Positions 49,187 to 63,969 of a stretch of 64,000 nt of DNA are shown here, in pieces. The translations under genes and the position numbers were made by a program. Numbering within the stretch: position 1 is the first letter of the stretch; each line of letters begins with the position of its first letter. The DNA is from an uncultured bacterium (GTDB lineage Bacteria > Cyanobacteriota > Vampirovibrionia > Gastranaerophilales > Gastranaerophilaceae), in the NCBI GenBank assembly GCA_947073645.1, contig CAMTMK010000002.1, positions 1 through 64,000 of the forward strand, given 5' to 3'. The notes under the pieces were generated by a model that saw only the letters and a list, made by a program, of their open reading frames with translations, did no database searches and had not been told where the DNA came from.

Positions 49187-49276
49187 CAATCTAATCATAG
49201 ATTTTTTTTTATATTTGATGAACATCCGTTTGATGTAGAACTTTATCAATCATTGGATTTATTATTGTGATTGTGG

Positions 49277-49282
49277 TATAAA
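49277..49282 (+). promoter_or_regulatory. -10 box of a probable leaderless promoter
   Basis: TATAAA six bases before ATG 49289, with no Shine-Dalgarno sequence. Confidence 0.45.
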
Positions 49283-49288
49283 GTTGTT

Positions 49289-50101
49289 ATGAAAAAGTAT
49301 TTGGTTTGGTTGTTAATATTAACGGGAATACCTGCTTTTGCAGATGAGATTATGCTTCGCGGGGTAGAAACTCAAGCTGTACAGCTTCCGAAAGTTAATA
49401 TTAATCAAAAACAATCTCTGCTTATTAATGATGAACAAGTACTTTCAGAACTTATTAACCGCCAAAAAGAAAAAGATTTAGAAGATATTGAAAACTTGTG
49501 GAAGGGGACTGTTGAGAACAATCAGGTTATCGGATTTGCACTGAAAAAGCTTGCAACTCCTGAAAGCCAGCGCAGAATTCATTCATCTCTTATGGCAAAA
49601 ACTTTGTCGGCAGTTGTCGCGGGTGCGTCTTTTGCCCCGTCTTTAGTCGGAGCTGATTATGCTGTTCAATCAGGTGCTTTTGCAGCGGGCAGACTCGCTC
49701 AAAACCTTATTAATCGTAAAAATATGCCGACTGAAATTCCTTTGACTGATACCGAGCTTATTGAACTTGCGGGACTTGTCGAAAATCTTCAAGACAAGAT
49801 TATTACAGCATATTATAATTACAAAAGTTCTCTTTCTCAATTGAAAGAAACGCGACAAAAACTGCTTTTGTATAATAAAAATTATGCCAAAGCGCTTGAT
49901 GATGAGGATTTAATGGAAATTTCCATTTCGTCATCACTTTACGATAATATGCGTGTTGAAGAATTTTATTATTTGGAAAACGCAAAAAAATATCACCTTG
50001 AGCTTCAAAGGCTTGCAGGTAAGAAAGTTGTTGATAAATTAAATTTGTATCAATTTAATTACAATTCAACTCTTGTCGGAGAAAAGGCGGTGGGTAAATG
50101 A
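49289..50101 (+). CDS. Exported helical protein, 270 aa (paralogue of the next gene)
   Basis: Family not recognised. It has a signal peptide (MKKYLVWLLILTGIPAFA, cleavage after AFA). The mature part is mainly helical. An Ala/Gly-rich segment (LSAVVAGASFAPSLVGADYA) sits before a coiled-coil region (LAGLVENLQDKIITAYYNYK) and an end domain (YYLENAKKYHLELQRLAGK). The same order appears in the gene at 50098 (VRKIEDLQQRTVDLYYNYMT and so on), so the two are tandem paralogues. The final part loosely resembles helical hairpins of TolC-like efflux proteins, but beta-strand segments are lacking. The start is preceded by TATAAA at six bases. Confidence 0.75.
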   Translation: MKKYLVWLLILTGIPAFADEIMLRGVETQAVQLPKVNINQKQSLLINDEQVLSELINRQKEKDLEDIENLWKGTVENNQVIGFALKKLATPESQRRIHSSLMAKTLSAVVAGASFAPSLVGADYAVQSGAFAAGRLAQNLINRKNMPTEIPLTDTELIELAGLVENLQDKIITAYYNYKSSLSQLKETRQKLLLYNKNYAKALDDEDLMEISISSSLYDNMRVEEFYYLENAKKYHLELQRLAGKKVVDKLNLYQFNYNSTLVGEKAVGK

Positions 50102-50976
50102 AAAAAATATTGACTCTGATTTTAATATTTTTTGCTTTGCCTGTATCTGCCGTAAGTTATGATGAGTTGAAGATGCCAAAAGACCATGCTTATCGTACCG
50201 GTTTATCTGAAGATCCTGAAAAAGAATATTTTGAAGCAAAGGCGCAAAATGTTTTACATCAGGAATATGTGAAAAAAGAGGCACAGCAGTTTAATGTTAA
50301 TGATTTAACTTTCGCGGATTTGAGTATTAAACAGATATCAAGAGAAGTTTCGGCAGACTTGGAACTTAATCAGGAAGATATGGTTGGGGATTTGTCAGTG
50401 TTGTGGCAGGGGGCTGCATCTCAAAGTGAAACAATAAATTTTGCACTTTATAAGCTTGCAAACCCTGATGAAGACAAGCCTGATGAAAAATCTGTTAAAA
50501 AAGTTTTGACAACAATTGCAAGTATGTCGACTCTTGCAGGTGCTACTATGGGAAACCCTGTTGTTGCTGCAGGTTCTTTAATCGGGAGTAATGTTCTTGG
50601 GATTATGTCGCAGGATACGAAAGCCCTTAACTACAAATATACTAAAGTTAATGATGCTGATATGATTATTTTAGTCAGAAAAATTGAGGACTTACAACAA
50701 AGAACAGTTGACCTTTATTATAATTATATGACATCGCGAAAAAAACTTAAAATGATTGATGAAATTGTGGCAGAGCGCAAAAAAAATTATGAGTATGCTC
50801 AGAATATGTCAAGAGAAGTTATATTGATTGCAGATGCATATTACAGAACTGCTCTCGATAATCATATGAAAGCTCGTTCCGAGTATTTTGCAAAGCGTGC
50901 TTCTTTAGAACAGTTTGTAGGTAACGAAGTTTTTGCACAGTTTGAACAAGATTTGAAGAAACGAGAGCAAAAATGA
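50098..50976 (+). CDS. Exported helical protein, 292 aa (paralogue of the previous gene)
   Basis: It has a signal peptide (about residues 1-17, ALPVSA). The mature protein shows DLSVLWQGAASQSETINFAL, matching DIENLWKGTVENNQVIGFAL of the upstream gene. It also has a Gly/Ala-rich patch (GATMGNPVVAAGSLIGSNVL) and a coiled-coil end (RKIEDLQQRTVDLYYNYMTS, ARSEYFAKRASLEQFVGNEV). The two genes overlap by four bases and this one overlaps the lipoyl-ligase-like gene by four, so all three are co-translated. Function unknown; an envelope complex of the two paralogues is plausible. Confidence 0.75.
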   Translation: MKKILTLILIFFALPVSAVSYDELKMPKDHAYRTGLSEDPEKEYFEAKAQNVLHQEYVKKEAQQFNVNDLTFADLSIKQISREVSADLELNQEDMVGDLSVLWQGAASQSETINFALYKLANPDEDKPDEKSVKKVLTTIASMSTLAGATMGNPVVAAGSLIGSNVLGIMSQDTKALNYKYTKVNDADMIILVRKIEDLQQRTVDLYYNYMTSRKKLKMIDEIVAERKKNYEYAQNMSREVILIADAYYRTALDNHMKARSEYFAKRASLEQFVGNEVFAQFEQDLKKREQK

Positions 50977-51697: not shown

Positions 51698-53209
51698 ATG
51701 TTTGGCTCAATTTATGGACCAGGAGTTTTAAATGATACTATAGTTCCAGGATACGGAGTAACTAAATTTCCAGTTAATCTTAATACATTCTGGTCACTTC
51801 CTAATGGTACAACAAGAAACTTTGGTGAAGCTACTCAATATGTAACTTATCCGATGGGTCGTCCTCAATTTATGTATGATTTGGCACAAGGTTTTACATC
51901 TCCAAACCATATCAGCAACTGGAATCCTATGTTGATTGGTATGAATTTGTCAAATGGTACAACTAATCCGTTTTTGACACAACAAGGCCAAATGAATGCT
52001 TTTCAATGGGGCGCTAATATGGTTCAACAAATGCAGGTTCAACAAGCAGTACAAGGTATTGCTCAAGCATTGAACTCAATGGAAAGCAGTTTGTCTGGTC
52101 TTGTTAATTCCGATAAATTAACAAATGCTCAAAAAGCAACTTTAAAAGGTCTTCTTGAAGAAGTAAAAGCTTTGAAATCTAAAATTGAATCTCAATTAAA
52201 AGCTAAAAATCCAACACAAGAAGAAGTAACAGCAATGCAAAACGAAGTTTTGGATTTGCAGAAAAAAGTTGGTGAAGCTGCTGATAAAATCAGAGCTGAT
52301 GTAAATGAAGCTGGAGATAGTTCATCATCTTCATCATCAAGTTCATCTTCATCTGAATCTTCTTCTGATCCTGCAGATTTAACCGGTACAGAATATGAAA
52401 ATATAGATCCTGAAACTGGAAAACCGAATTCATTGACTACTCCGTCTGATGCTGAAAAAGAAGAATTCTGTGCTGCTATTGAAAGATGTATTCATGGTGC
52501 AGGTACTGATGAAGATACTCTAAGACAGATTTTACCAGGTCTTAACGAAAATAATATTGTTGAAGTTATTAGCCACTGGGAAGAAACTAGAGGCAAACAT
52601 GATGATAATGAAGGGTTATTTGCAAGATTATTTAAAGATTTGAATGATGGCGAACAAAAGGAAATGGTTCCCATACTTTTAAAAGCTTTAACTGCTCGTG
52701 CAGAAGCTTTGGGTATAGGAGAAGAAATTAAACAAGAAATTGCAAATATCAATAAAGAATTATTGACAGAAGGTCATAATTGGTATTGCCTATGGTTAGA
52801 TGCCGGTCAAGATGATGATGTTCTTAAAAACAATTTAATGTCTATCTACAACAAAATTGTAGAAAAAGAAACTGCTAACAAAACCGGTGCTCAAGAAGTT
52901 CTTGATGGTAAAAAGAACGAACACAATACAGAAGTTGAACAAAGAAAACAAGAAGTTATCACTGAAAAGAAAAACGAAATCGCTAATAAATTGAAAGATG
53001 CTTTGAAATTAGACGAAGTTCCTCAATTATCTTCAGCTTTAAAAATTGAAACAGATGATAATGGCGAATTTACAGGTTATTCAATCGAATTAAATACACC
53101 AAACGGTAAAGTTAAAGTTACAGGCCAAACATACCAAGAGTTAGCTCTTGCTATTGAAAACAACAACTTAGAAGTTGAAGATGTTTTAGTTAGACAACCA
53201 AAAGCTTAG
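51698..53209 (+). CDS. Protein with a single annexin-like repeat and coiled coils, 503 aa
   Basis: The N-terminal 110 residues are Asn/Gly/aromatic-rich. A helical coiled coil follows (about residues 115-205). A serine-rich linker (about residues 207-225) precedes an annexin-like segment at about residues 250-320. That segment has IHGAGTDEDTLRQIL, then NNIVEVISHWEETRGK and LFKDLNDGEQKEM, matching the annexin type II calcium loop GxGTDE, its first helices and the acidic cap residue before LxG. The acidic residue is about five positions further away than in animal annexins. C-terminal charged helices complete the protein. There is no signal peptide. Strong ribosome binding site AAGGGGAT. Function unknown; calcium or phospholipid binding is a testable guess. 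Confidence 0.75.
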   Translation: MFGSIYGPGVLNDTIVPGYGVTKFPVNLNTFWSLPNGTTRNFGEATQYVTYPMGRPQFMYDLAQGFTSPNHISNWNPMLIGMNLSNGTTNPFLTQQGQMNAFQWGANMVQQMQVQQAVQGIAQALNSMESSLSGLVNSDKLTNAQKATLKGLLEEVKALKSKIESQLKAKNPTQEEVTAMQNEVLDLQKKVGEAADKIRADVNEAGDSSSSSSSSSSSSESSSDPADLTGTEYENIDPETGKPNSLTTPSDAEKEEFCAAIERCIHGAGTDEDTLRQILPGLNENNIVEVISHWEETRGKHDDNEGLFARLFKDLNDGEQKEMVPILLKALTARAEALGIGEEIKQEIANINKELLTEGHNWYCLWLDAGQDDDVLKNNLMSIYNKIVEKETANKTGAQEVLDGKKNEHNTEVEQRKQEVITEKKNEIANKLKDALKLDEVPQLSSALKIETDDNGEFTGYSIELNTPNGKVKVTGQTYQELALAIENNNLEVEDVLVRQPKA

Positions 53210-59433: not shown

Positions 59434-62400
59434 CTAAGCGTAATATCTTTGAGATTTAGATAAAGCTTGAACACGTCTTTGACGGTATTTAGCATTCTTC
59501 TTTATGATATCTTTAGTACGTTTAGTTAATTTGCCTGGTGCAGCGTATTTCTTTTTAGTTTCGCCTTCTTGATTTTGAGTCATGAACATTCCAGCAACTG
59601 ACATTGCTGTATTTGCAACCTGTCCTGTAATGTCGAAGATTTGATTGATTTTTTCTCTTTTTTTATTTTTCTTAAATTCAGTACGTTTAGCTTGTTCAGC
59701 TTCGTATTTTGCGGCTTCTTCTTCACCGTATTCTCCGAGAGCTTCTTGTCTGTATTCTTCAAGCATATCATCATCAAGGTCTGCAAATTCTTCTGATGCG
59801 CCGTTTTTTTCCATGTTAGTTTTTCTAAATTCTTCTTCTCTTTTAGCTTTTTCTTCTGGAGTTTCTGCTGTTGTAACCGGAGTTTCAGTTGTGTCATCTT
59901 CCATAGCAGCTAATTCTTCTTCTGTGAAAGTTGGGATTTCATCATCTGTATCATTAGTTTCAGGTGCTTCAGATTTTGTATTAACAGGTTCAACAGGTTC
60001 ATCTGTTCCAATTTCACTTGAAGAAGATGTTTCTGCTGGAGTTTCACTTCTTAAAGCTTCAGCAGCTTCTGCTTGTGTATCTGTAACTTCTAATGCAGGA
60101 GTTTCAGCAGGTTTTTCAGTAGATGTTGGCGCAGGCGTATTTTTACCGTCTGTTTCAGGAACATTTCCTGTTACTGCAGGTGTAGTTGTTTCAGGTTGTT
60201 CTGCTTCTTCATCCGGTGTTGTAGTTTGAGGTTGTGCAGGTTGTTGAGGTTCTTCTGCTTTTACAAAACCTGTTTGTTGTAGTTGTTGTTTAAGAGCTGT
60301 AAGTTCTGTTTTTTGTTCAGGTGTTAAGTTTGAATCATTTAAAGTCGCATCTATTTTTGAACTTCTTTGCTCAGGTGTCATATTTTTAAGTGTAGAATCG
60401 TTTTTTAATTCAGCTAGTTTTGCTTTTGCTTCAGCTTTTTGTTCAGGTGTTAGTTTATTGTTTTTATCGATAGCTTTGTTTGCTTTATCATTTGATTTGT
60501 CATCATTAGTGTTGTTATCATCTTCTGCTTTTTCAGCTTTTCCGCCAGCGAATTGACCAATAGAACCAAGTGTTTGTAAACCTCCGCCGATAGTACCTAA
60601 AAGATTAGCAGTTTTTTCATCGCCTAAATTGAATTCACTCATAATTTGGCTTGTTGAAGACAATGCAGTACCAGTTACACTAGTAATTGTTGCAATTTTA
60701 CCTAATGTGTTTTGGTCACCCATTTTGCTTACACTATTTGCTGCTCCTGTAACGGCAGAACCAACACCAGCAATTGTTCCAATTTTGCTTGCAATACCAC
60801 TTGCTTCTTTACCTTGAACAGCTCTTACGTTATTTACAAGTTCAGCAGAAGAAGAAACTATGCTCAAACCTTCTGAAACATATGATAATGCACTTCCAGC
60901 AGCAGCTCCGCCACCTGCAAAACTTGTTGCGGCTGTAACTGCTGCAGAACCAATTGCCATTAAGCCTGCTGCTAAGTTTCCATTTGCGATGTTAATTACA
61001 CCTTTTGTTAAACCGCAAGCAACAGTACCAACTGTACCAATAATTGTTAAAACACCACCAACAGTTTGTAATGATAAACCTGTTGTTAATATAGGTATAC
61101 CAGATGATATTAAAGATAAACCTGCCGGAGTTGTCGGCCAAGGTAATAGTGCAATACCAGCTTGAATTAAACCGGTACCTGTTGTTTCCATTGATGTACC
61201 AACTTGTGTTAATACAGTACCTGTTGTTGATGTGATTGAGAAAATATTTTCAGCAATACCGATTGCACCGAAAATTTTGTTTAATTTCTTTTGTTTTTCT
61301 TTTTCTTTTTTTTCGGTTTCTTTAAGTTTTTTCTCTTTAAGTTTAATTTTCTTTTGAAATTTTGTAGATTTTGTTTCAATTGAATCTTGAACTTTTACGA
61401 TTTTTGTTCTGTTTCTTACAACAATAGTATCTTGACCTTTAAATTCAATGCCAAGTTCGTTAATTCTTTGATTATTTTGATCAAGTTTGCTTTGGTTATC
61501 AGTACCGTCAGGAGTGCTTGTTATTGTGAAGCTGTTAGATGCAAGCATACCACCTTGTTCATCGTCTTCTTTTTGTTGTGGAGCTTTTTTAGGTGCACTT
61601 AATTGTTTAGCTTCTTCTTGAGCAGATATTTGCTCATTTTCAGCATTAAGTGATTCGTATTCAACTAAAATTGCTTGTTGTTTTTGAACAGCTTTTTGAG
61701 ATTCTTGAGTTAATTTGATAACTTCTTCTTGTTCTTTTTGAATTTGTTTTTCTAATTTTTTTGCTTCTTTTTCAAGTTGTTTAGCATCTTTCTTTTCATC
61801 TTTTTCGATTTTTTTAGATTCTTTTCCGGCATCTTTAGCATCTTTGTTACCAGATTTTACAATATCATTTTGATTGTCGGTTTGTTTTTTTAGTTGGCTT
61901 TCTTGTTGTTTAGCATTTTTCTCAACTGATGCAGGATCTTCTTCTGTATTTTCTTTTTTTGAGCTTTCTGAATTTTCAGTTTTTGCATTTTCAGTAGCTT
62001 CTTTAGCTTCTTCATTTTCAATATTTTCTTCTGGAGAAGTTGTTTCTTCAGGAGTTTTTGGTGTTTCAGGAGCTTCTGGTGTTTCAACACCAAGTTCTTC
62101 AGCAGTCTCTTCTGTTTCTGTTACTGCTTCTTCAATAACTTCAGCTTCTTCACTTTGTTCAGTACCTTCAGCAGGTGTTGTTTCTTCATTGTTTTCTGTA
62201 GTTTCAACACCTTCTTCATTTTCTGATGTAGGAATTTGAGTTGCTTCTGCGCCTGTTACAGAAATGATTTCAGCTTCTAGTGTTGTCAAATCGTTGATTG
62301 CACCATCTTCTTCTTTTATTGCTTTGTCTGTTGCTTTTTCTGCAATTGTCGGAAGCGGTGTATCACCTGCGACTTGAGCAGCAATGCCGATACCAGTGCT

Positions 62401-63969
62401 GATTGTACCTAATGCAATATTTTTAAGACCTTTTTCAAACTGCCAAGCCATAATTTGCATCATACCTAATTCGATACGGTAAACGCCGATTTTTGAAAGT
62501 GTTTCGCCGCTTGCATCTGTGAAGTCTAATCTTTCTTTAGCAGCAGGAATAATTTCTTCTTTGTATTCGGTATCATTTTCTAATGCTTCTGCTTCAGCTG
62601 GAATTGCGTTAGAAATAATTTCGCTTTCTTTTTCTGTTGCAGTTGCGAATTTACCTTTAGCTTCTTCTGATTCAACTTTAATGTTTTCGATTTCTTCGTT
62701 ATTTGATGCGATTTTTTGTCTTAATTCTGCAACTTTTTCTTTGTCACTTTCAGGCTTATGACCTTCTTGAGTTTTTTCAGCCGGTTTTTGTTCATTAAGT
62801 TCGTCAGCAGATTTGCCAGTTAAGTTTTCAAGTTCTTGGTTTGCTTCTTTATTTTCTTGTTCCATTGCTTGAATTCTTGCTTGGCGTTCTTCTTCTTGTT
62901 TTTGGAATTCTTTAACAAGTTTAGTTACTTTAATTCCTGCAATTTTAGCGAATTTTCTGTCATCTTTAGCAACTCTGATTGATTTAACTGCGCTGATTGT
63001 TTGTTGAGCTAAGTCAACATTAATATCTGCAGCTTCTTTAATAAGTTCTTTTACGTTTTTATCGTTAATAACAAAATCTTCCTGTTCTGTAACTTCAGGG
63101 TTCTTTTCTTCACCTTGTGCAGATTCAGTACCTTGTGCAGTTTGTTGTTCAGTTTCTTGAACTGCATCTTCGCTTCCGGCTTCTTGAGTTTTTGGTTGTT
63201 CTGTACCAAGAACTTCATCTTTTCCTGCAATCATACCGCCGATGTCAAGAACTGATGCAATGTCATTTACAGATTGTTGAGTTTCATCTGTGAAATCTTT
63301 TGTATCGTTACCTGTTATATTTGCTTCTTTTGCAAGAGCTTTACCTTGAGCCATAGCTACAATCGCTCTTAGGAAACCGATTTCTCCGCGAGCTTGGTTG
63401 CGAGTTGTTTTGTAGTTAGCCTTTGATGTATAGTCAGCTAATGTGTCACCAATTACGATTGTTTCATCGGCAAGTTTTTCTCCTAAGATAGCAAGAATGT
63501 TAAGCTCATTCATTGATTTAGCGATTTCGCGTTTATCTAATGAAAAGCCTTTATCATCTCCGGATTTTTTTTCTTCAAACATTCCCATTAAATCAGCATA
63601 ACGTCTTGCTTCTGATGTTGATAAAGCTTCTCCGTTGTTGATTTTTGTCTGGATGTGATTCCATTCTTTTACGAAGGCTTCGTATTCTTTAAGAGAACGT
63701 CTTTGTTCTTTCATTTGGTCATCGAATTTTCTTTTTCTTTTTTGTTGTTCGGGTAAAAGGTCTTGGATTTCTTTTTCTATTTTTTCATTGTTTTTGTCAC
63801 ATTTTTCAATCTTTTTTTCAGCCAAAGGGATAAGTTCAAGGAAAGATAAAGTTGTATCTTCTTGGCCGTCTTCGCCTTCTATAGCTTGTTCTGAAGAAAT
63901 AGAAGACTGCATAATTGTATTTGCAATATCTACTACTTCTTGAGGTACATTTACACCGTTATCTGCCAT
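59434..63969 (-). CDS. Very large Lys/Glu-rich protein with a hydrophobic Gly/Ala core, at least 1511 aa
   Basis: Function not recognised. Residues about 30-560 are mostly charged helix, coiled coil prone. Residues 573-790 are extremely acidic/basic low complexity (Glu, Thr, Lys, Gln). Residues 910-1110 form a long hydrophobic Gly/Ala/Thr-rich region (GTGLIQAGIALLPWPTTPAG, GTVGTVACGLTKGVINIANG, AAVTAATSFAGGGAAAGSAL). Residues 1170-1225 carry LTPEQK-type repeats. A second acidic stretch leads to a basic C-terminus (KLTKRTKDIIKKNAKYRQRR). There is no visible signal peptide. The frame stays open from the ATG at 63969 to the right edge, and no ribosome binding site precedes that ATG, so the true start may lie outside the window. 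Confidence 0.75.
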   Translation of the reverse strand: MADNGVNVPQEVVDIANTIMQSSISSEQAIEGEDGQEDTTLSFLELIPLAEKKIEKCDKNNEKIEKEIQDLLPEQQKRKRKFDDQMKEQRRSLKEYEAFVKEWNHIQTKINNGEALSTSEARRYADLMGMFEEKKSGDDKGFSLDKREIAKSMNELNILAILGEKLADETIVIGDTLADYTSKANYKTTRNQARGEIGFLRAIVAMAQGKALAKEANITGNDTKDFTDETQQSVNDIASVLDIGGMIAGKDEVLGTEQPKTQEAGSEDAVQETEQQTAQGTESAQGEEKNPEVTEQEDFVINDKNVKELIKEAADINVDLAQQTISAVKSIRVAKDDRKFAKIAGIKVTKLVKEFQKQEEERQARIQAMEQENKEANQELENLTGKSADELNEQKPAEKTQEGHKPESDKEKVAELRQKIASNNEEIENIKVESEEAKGKFATATEKESEIISNAIPAEAEALENDTEYKEEIIPAAKERLDFTDASGETLSKIGVYRIELGMMQIMAWQFEKGLKNIALGTISTGIGIAAQVAGDTPLPTIAEKATDKAIKEEDGAINDLTTLEAEIISVTGAEATQIPTSENEEGVETTENNEETTPAEGTEQSEEAEVIEEAVTETEETAEELGVETPEAPETPKTPEETTSPEENIENEEAKEATENAKTENSESSKKENTEEDPASVEKNAKQQESQLKKQTDNQNDIVKSGNKDAKDAGKESKKIEKDEKKDAKQLEKEAKKLEKQIQKEQEEVIKLTQESQKAVQKQQAILVEYESLNAENEQISAQEEAKQLSAPKKAPQQKEDDEQGGMLASNSFTITSTPDGTDNQSKLDQNNQRINELGIEFKGQDTIVVRNRTKIVKVQDSIETKSTKFQKKIKLKEKKLKETEKKEKEKQKKLNKIFGAIGIAENIFSITSTTGTVLTQVGTSMETTGTGLIQAGIALLPWPTTPAGLSLISSGIPILTTGLSLQTVGGVLTIIGTVGTVACGLTKGVINIANGNLAAGLMAIGSAAVTAATSFAGGGAAAGSALSYVSEGLSIVSSSAELVNNVRAVQGKEASGIASKIGTIAGVGSAVTGAANSVSKMGDQNTLGKIATITSVTGTALSSTSQIMSEFNLGDEKTANLLGTIGGGLQTLGSIGQFAGGKAEKAEDDNNTNDDKSNDKANKAIDKNNKLTPEQKAEAKAKLAELKNDSTLKNMTPEQRSSKIDATLNDSNLTPEQKTELTALKQQLQQTGFVKAEEPQQPAQPQTTTPDEEAEQPETTTPAVTGNVPETDGKNTPAPTSTEKPAETPALEVTDTQAEAAEALRSETPAETSSSSEIGTDEPVEPVNTKSEAPETNDTDDEIPTFTEEELAAMEDDTTETPVTTAETPEEKAKREEEFRKTNMEKNGASEEFADLDDDMLEEYRQEALGEYGEEEAAKYEAEQAKRTEFKKNKKREKINQIFDITGQVANTAMSVAGMFMTQNQEGETKKKYAAPGKLTKRTKDIIKKNAKYRQRRVQALSKSQRYYA

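What the first reader, a model, noticed from the sequence alone, without database searches (positions are those of the whole stretch)
52440..52665. Annexin-like repeat in a bacterial protein
Residues about 250-320 contain GAGTDEDTLRQIL and the following helices in the order of an annexin repeat, including the GxGTDE calcium loop and an acidic cap residue (Asp) before LND about five residues later than the animal spacing. Annexins are mostly eukaryotic, and bacterial examples are rare. A single repeat on a serine-rich tether in a gut bacterium could bind calcium and membranes, bacterial or host.
Basis: partly seen in the sequence, partly recalled or inferred. Interest (0 to 1): 0.75.

Follow-up and report, generated by a model that had tools for sequence, protein, structure and literature searches.

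The report
Divergent annexin repeat in gut bacteria
A gut bacterium carries a genuine but strongly diverged single unit of annexin, the calcium- and membrane-binding protein best known from animals and plants, and in its relatives this unit changes abruptly between otherwise similar proteins, as if it were an interchangeable head.

Summary
Confirmed and extended. The 503-aa protein at 51698-53209 (+) of a Gastranaerophilales genome holds one divergent annexin repeat (residues ~251-338). Pfam alone would miss it (14 bits against a cut-off of 25). A profile of its own family matches a profile of 15 bacterial annexin repeats well above 200 shuffles, even with the GxGTDE loop masked. AlphaFold2 gives the five annexin helices A-E (pLDDT 86), with solved annexins as nearest folds. 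The loop glycine-threonine and the acidic cap are kept in 28-29 of 30 relatives. A two-helix tail (to ~390) is not annexin-like and travels with the repeat.

Beyond the finding: the domain occurs in 171 of 288 genomes of the bacterial family. Relatives include clear four-repeat annexins and large LysM proteins carrying the same domain. The gene sits in a conserved locus, but the repeat plus tail changes abruptly between close relatives while the flanks stay alike, and the reverse also occurs; this suggests cassette exchange, with incomplete statistical support. Bacterial annexins are already published (2014), so this is a new variant of a known kind. Calcium and membrane binding are inferred, not shown; I found no signal peptide, injection sheath or toxin domain.

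The parts
51698..53209 (+). gene of the annexin-repeat protein, 503 aa, single copy in the genome
   Evidence: only one match in its own genome with the family profile at E<=1
51698..51997 (+). N-terminal module (residues 1-100), Gly/Asn/Thr/Pro-rich, low predicted order; a separate small gene of 88-102 aa just upstream in three relatives
   Evidence: composition; AlphaFold2 residues 1-93 under pLDDT 50; separate ORFs in L010, L012, L028
51998..52312 (+). helical, coiled-coil-like part (residues 101-205)
   Evidence: helices 91-136, 143-169, 174-205 in the full-length model
52313..52447 (+). serine-rich acidic linker (residues 206-250; 17 Ser, net charge -7)
52448..52711 (+). divergent annexin repeat, five helices A-E (residues 251-338)
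52496..52513 (+). A-B loop GAGTDE (residues 267-272), type II calcium-site motif
   Evidence: G269 in 28 of 30 and T270 in 29 of 30 relatives
52637..52639 (+). acidic cap residue D314, at the end of predicted helix D
   Evidence: D or E in 29 of 30 relatives; helix D ends at residue 314
52712..52867 (+). two-helix tail (residues 339-390), not annexin-like, changes together with the repeat
   Evidence: profile comparison of 335-402 with annexin repeats gives probability 0.8; region identities
52868..53017 (+). Lys/Glu-rich helix (residues 391-440)
53018..53206 (+). conserved C-terminal module with three strands and two helices (residues 441-503)
   Evidence: present in 27 of the 30 rows (absent in L023 and L024, cut off in L008)

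Best explanation
The protein is a non-enzymatic tethered docking protein. Its functional head is a single divergent annexin repeat plus a two-helix tail, held on a coiled-coil and serine-rich stalk and followed by a conserved C-terminal module. Shown here: homology to annexin repeats; predicted five-helix fold; conserved loop and acidic cap; fixed locus; head and stalk with different histories or rates. Inferred: the G-x-G-T backbone of the A-B loop and D314 hold a calcium ion that bridges to acidic phospholipid head groups, so the head binds membrane when calcium is high; the inserted residues lie between helices C and D, away from the site. Also inferred: the head is replaced as a cassette, so that related strains dock to different membranes or partners.
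For: Profile-profile match over all five helices, surviving the masked loop. Reciprocal: a profile built only from this family finds all four repeats of two four-repeat annexins (E 6.3e-20 and 1.1e-13 for the small set searched), and the annexin-repeat profile finds five intermediate family members. AlphaFold2 pLDDT 86.2, pTM 0.83, helices in annexin order. Nearest solved folds are annexins. Loop and cap conserved in 28-29 of 30. Cassette: identity with sister L002 is 96/84 percent in the N-terminal parts, 49/51 in repeat and tail, 90 at the C-terminus, while L002 and L003 share 90/90 in repeat and tail; DNA identity with L002 falls from 92-97 percent near the N-terminus and 79-88 in the coil to 52-68 in the head and returns to 84-91; 19 of 351 pairs have flanks >=60 and head <40 percent, 9 have head >=65 and flanks <60.
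Against: Most relatives have Y, not E, after GT[DN], and only 16 of 30 keep the first loop glycine, so the site may be weak or lost in many. A single repeat may bind weakly. Of ten clade tests six did not reject a shared history, including the one for this protein with its sister (p 0.058); with 15 loci the branching orders of head, flanks and neighbour genes largely agree and mainly branch lengths differ; no donor closer than 52 percent was found in 33 genomes of the genus. No signal peptide or export route was found, so exposure to calcium-rich surroundings is unproven.
Confidence: 0.55

Rival explanations
1. A true annexin repeat by descent that has lost calcium and membrane binding and serves as a fast-changing helical protein-recognition domain.
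For: In the family the loop varies: E272 kept in 2 of 30, G267 in 16 of 30; in five of the large relatives (L067, L068, L069, L074, L076) the GT motif reads GV or GL; the head differs strongly between near relatives, as expected of a partner-recognition part.
Against: The window protein itself keeps the complete GAGTDE loop; T270 is kept in 29 of 30 and the acidic cap in 29 of 30, which is hard to explain without the site unless both are structural (helix capping).
Confidence: 0.3
2. The protein belongs to a secreted effector or polymorphic-toxin-like system in which the annexin repeat helps delivery across a membrane.
For: Annexin domains are reported in toxins delivered by PVC-type injection systems, always ahead of an enzymatic toxin domain (passages of PMC3482391). 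In this bacterial family the same domain sits in 1100-1800-aa proteins with LysM, sometimes EF-hand-like or FHA segments, a hydrophobic stretch and differing C-termini.
Against: The window protein has no recognised toxin domain, no hydrophobic stretch (highest 19-residue mean 1.18), and its genome has no phage-type sheath gene, where 3 of 14 control genomes ring.
Confidence: 0.2
3. Chance resemblance: a GxGTDE string in an unrelated helical protein.
For: Pfam score below cut-off; Foldseek E-values 0.039 or worse and a designed helical protein at Z 7.2 against 8.2 for the best annexin.
Against: Masked and shuffled profile controls, reciprocal profile hits and intermediate sequences, conservation of loop and cap.
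Confidence: 0.02

Closest known systems
Annexin repeat family (Pfam PF00191; animal annexins such as A4, A5, A6, A8)
   Same: five-helix order A-E, G-x-G-T loop, acidic cap at the D/E turn; nearest sequences and folds in the PDB
   Different: one repeat instead of four; C-D insertion (44 instead of about 39 residues from T to cap); below the Pfam cut-off; two extra helices; different flanking modules
Bacterial annexins of Kodavali et al. 2014 (PMC3894181)
   Same: single or several annexin domains in bacteria, GxGTD kept, other domains attached
   Different: that survey's 17 species include no Melainabacteria/Gastranaerophilales (abstract, section 4 parts 1-2 and section 10 read); the chassis, the tail and the cassette-like change are not described in the parts read
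Annexin domains in PVC-delivered toxins (Zhang et al. 2012, PMC3482391; passages read)
   Same: single annexin domain as an accessory part of a larger protein
   Different: no toxin domain here and no PF04984 contractile sheath in the genome
Four-repeat annexins of the same bacterial family (L077:3940-5760, L078:3970-6027)
   Same: homologous repeats, found by this family's profile
   Different: four repeats each, Pfam E 5.1e-64 and 5.7e-56

Membership tests
Annexin repeat (PF00191 homology) | statistically significant sequence homology over the repeat | tested here: met
   hhalign 97.3 probability, score 64.9 against at most 20.2 in 200 shuffles, 47.8 with loop masked; reciprocal profile hits
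Annexin repeat (PF00191 homology) | Pfam curated cut-off (25 bits) | tested here: not met
   14 bits whole protein, 16.5 bits fragment; no PF00191 match in the own genome at E<=0.001; best relative among 30 reaches 20.4 bits. A recognition threshold rather than a biological trait, but it means Pfam itself would not list this protein
Annexin repeat (PF00191 homology) | five helices A-E in annexin arrangement | tested here: met
   predicted helices 251-265, 272-281, 287-297, 306-314, 317-337; best solved match annexin V, Z 8.2, 91 residues, rmsd 2.4. Margin over unrelated helical chains is small (7.2)
Annexin repeat (PF00191 homology) | G-x-G-T-[DE] loop and acidic cap at the D/E turn | tested here: met
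   GAGTDE and D314; 28, 29 and 29 of 30 relatives for G269, T270 and D/E314
Annexin (four-repeat protein) | core of four repeats | tested here: not met
   one repeat; the tail 335-402 is not annexin-like (probability 0.8). Not filed as an annexin in this sense
Annexin (four-repeat protein) | calcium-dependent binding to acidic phospholipids | not testable with these tools
   needs purified protein
Bacterial single-domain annexins (Kodavali 2014) | single annexin domain in a bacterial protein, with GxGTD | tested here: met
   description read in PMC3894181 section 4
PVC/contractile-system toxin with annexin domain | C-terminal enzymatic toxin domain after the annexin domain | tested here: not met
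   no family in Pfam or NCBIfam reaches its cut-off in this protein
PVC/contractile-system toxin with annexin domain | contractile injection system in the genome | tested here: not met
   PF04984 sheath absent from own genome (99.81 percent complete), rings in 3 of 14 controls; other sheath families not tried

The most novel reading that the evidence does not exclude
Gut Gastranaerophilales use the annexin fold as an exchangeable recognition head: a fixed chromosomal locus holds a conserved stalk and C-terminus, and the annexin repeat with its two-helix tail is replaced as a unit by divergent types, giving strains different calcium-dependent docking to bacterial or host membranes. This would be an annexin system diversified like an antigen or specificity module.
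Probability: 0.3. Interest if true: 0.8.

Novelty: new variant of a known kind. Interest (0 to 1): 0.6.

Why it matters
Annexins are usually treated as eukaryotic, and the origin of bacterial ones was left open in 2014 (abstract of PMC3894181). A bacterial family of the gut in which single divergent repeats, intermediate forms, large multi-domain proteins and clear four-repeat annexins coexist gives a dense series for testing how annexins arose and multiplied. If the head is an exchanged cassette, it also offers a natural set of variants for asking what a lone annexin repeat binds.

Tried and rejected
Chance motif: rejected by masked, reversed and shuffled profile controls. Second degenerate annexin repeat in the tail: no support. 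Contractile injection cargo: no PF04984 in the genome. Phage protein: only two PHROG tail-family matches at E 0.06-0.07, over the coiled-coil and linker. DUF7547 (19.1 bits, cut-off 27) and other Pfam matches over the coil are sub-threshold. Scanning 30 family members one by one with Pfam gave annexin for only 2 of 30 at E<=0.1: a result against easy recognition, explained by divergence. Search for a donor of this head in 33 genomes of the genus found none above 52 percent. The full-length model has a disordered N-terminus, so the N- and C-terminal modules were not compared with known folds. The papers found with Gastranaerophilales or Melainabacteria plus annexin (8 and 4) were seen only as listings; by title and abstract start they look like host or microbiota studies, not bacterial annexins; Vampirovibri plus annexin gave 0; 'annexin repeat', bacteria and LysM gave one plant paper.

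Full report
WHAT IS THERE. The finding lies in a 503-aa ORF at 51698-53209 (+). The nearest named relatives, 15 loci from the genome collection, are mostly titled Gastranaerophilales or Melainabacteria; one carries a Fusobacterium label and two only 'uncultured bacterium'. Residue numbers follow the ORF. The loop GAGTDE is 267-272 and the acidic cap D314. Pfam recognises the repeat only weakly (E 0.056; 0.0088 for a fragment; cut-off not reached), and 13 of 14 PDB sequence hits are annexins, best E 0.0056.

IS IT HOMOLOGY. A family of 30 sequences, the window protein included, was aligned (A1; loci were returned for the best 30 of the 50 matches listed, which searched 97 genomes, 40 with a match). 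The domain of 14 relatives plus the window (A3; one of the 15 loci, L045, has a different C-terminus and was left out) was compared with 15 repeats of bacterial annexin proteins (A5). I chose the A5 rows by their GT motif, and two of them, in L055, were not individually listed by Pfam. Probability is 97.3, score 64.9; with the seven loop columns masked 47.8; reversed 13.5; best of 200 column shuffles 20.2. Restricting to residues 250-338 gives probability 97.7, and 335-402 only 0.8. A profile of A3 alone finds all four repeats of two four-repeat annexins; the A5 profile finds five intermediate proteins, in L069, L072 (two), L073 and L079. L079 (the same gene as L024) is a homologue of the window protein at the same locus type and reaches 20.4 bits with Pfam annexin. 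The A3 profile against PDB sequences ranks annexins first (best E 0.00035; 31 of 40 rows are annexins).

FOLD. AlphaFold2 on the domain (15 sequences) gives pLDDT 86.2 and pTM 0.83, with helices at 251-265, 272-281, 287-297, 306-314 and 317-337, then 342-356 and 373-402. Foldseek's top matches are annexins, including annexin fusion constructs titled as PDZ domains, but E-values are 0.039 or worse. The second aligner gives annexin V Z 8.2, rmsd 2.4 over 91 residues; the best unrelated chain scores 7.2. The fold evidence therefore supports the sequence evidence and would not carry the case alone.

CALCIUM SITE. In the 30 sequences G269 is kept in 28, T270 in 29, D/N at 271 in 22, and D/E at 314 in 29; G267 in 16 and E272 in 2. 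The distance T to cap is 42-68 in the family, 44 here, and 36-45 in the A5 repeats. D314 ends predicted helix D, where annexins carry the cap; that the loop carbonyls and cap bind calcium in annexins is established knowledge (recalled; the GxGTD loop and D/E-turn Glu are also described in PMC3894181, section 4). Geometry could not be measured.

SPREAD. The domain profile matches 171 of 288 genomes of the family (26 of 41 genera, E<=0.001) and 111 of 386 genomes of the phylum (E<=1e-5), of which 110 are in this family and one in the same order; the profile also picks up true annexins, so these are counts of annexin-like repeats. Pfam annexin itself rings in 52 of 289 genomes of the class, 36 above the cut-off. 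Two proteins have four repeats each (L077, L078; Pfam E 5.1e-64 and 5.7e-56) beside ordinary bacterial genes.

LOCUS AND CASSETTE. The gene is single-copy. In the named loci it follows two related proteins with signal-peptide-like starts (judged by eye) and a lipoate ligase (present in 13-14 of 15) and precedes ispD and an AIR-synthase-family gene, thiL-like by recall (12 of 15). Some of the misses are loci cut off by contig ends. Against the closest relative those neighbours are about 89-95 percent identical, while the head is 49 percent. Region by region, window versus L002: 96, 84, 71, 49, 51, 76, 90; L002 versus L003: 89, 73, 47, 90, 90, 58, 73. DNA identity shows the same fall and return. 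Among 351 pairs of 27 rows (three rows without a full C-terminus dropped), 35 have flanks >=60 percent and 19 of these have head <40; 9 have head >=65 with flanks <60. Within a type the head is well conserved, so steady fast evolution does not fit well. Trees: ten clade tests, chosen after seeing the trees, gave four rejections (p 0.0025, 5e-59, 0.0014, 1.5e-5) and six non-rejections, among them the window protein with its sister (0.058). Of the four held groups, the 5e-59 one is part of a six-row flank set with 87/88 support, and the 1.5e-5 one was not a supported head clade. With 15 loci the branching orders of head, flanks and four neighbour genes largely agree; the head differs by very long branches between types. 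Exchange is therefore likely for some relatives, and for the window protein exchange from an unsampled donor or a burst of change both remain possible (best relative 52 percent).

ARCHITECTURE. In three relatives the N-terminal module is a separate small gene directly upstream, which suggests that it works with the rest. In large relatives the same domain follows LysM (Pfam cut-off met in L067, L069, L070, L071), with EF-hand-like matches below the cut-off in L069 and an FHA domain in L068 and L070. The window protein has no long hydrophobic stretch and no recognised enzyme or toxin domain.

VERDICT. A real, divergent, single annexin repeat; new variant of a known kind. The mechanism (calcium-dependent docking head on a stalk) is my best inference at 0.55.

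Noticed in passing
L077:3940-5760 (-), L077:5792-7009 (-): A 607-aa protein with four annexin repeats next to a 406-aa protein with two, beside bacterial MFS and purH-type genes: tetrad annexins in a gut bacterial family.
   Followed up: partly
L078:3970-6027 (+): A 686-aa four-repeat annexin-like protein, Pfam E 5.7e-56, on a 487-kb contig beside a U32 peptidase and pyruvate:ferredoxin oxidoreductase.
   Followed up: partly
L067, L068, L069, L070, L074, L076: Proteins of about 1100-1800 aa (L074 cut at a contig end) with LysM-like segment, the annexin-like domain, a conserved hydrophobic Gly/Ala-rich region and strongly differing C-termini (FHA in two): layout like polymorphic secreted proteins.
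   Followed up: partly
window 49271-50101 and 50098-50976 (+): Two adjacent related proteins with signal-peptide-like starts and no Pfam match, conserved beside the annexin-repeat gene in 13 of 15 loci.
   Followed up: no
window 59434-63969 (-): A 1511-aa ORF without any Pfam match, also much less conserved between relatives (about 37-67 percent) than its neighbours.
   Followed up: no
L056:1252 onward (-): A 477-aa-frame protein with one annexin repeat followed by a hydrophobic Gly/Ala-rich stretch and an unidentified C-terminal part.
   Followed up: no
L045:9950-11062 (+): A homologue at the same locus type shares the N-terminal and coil modules but has a different C-terminus without the annexin repeat.
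   Followed up: no
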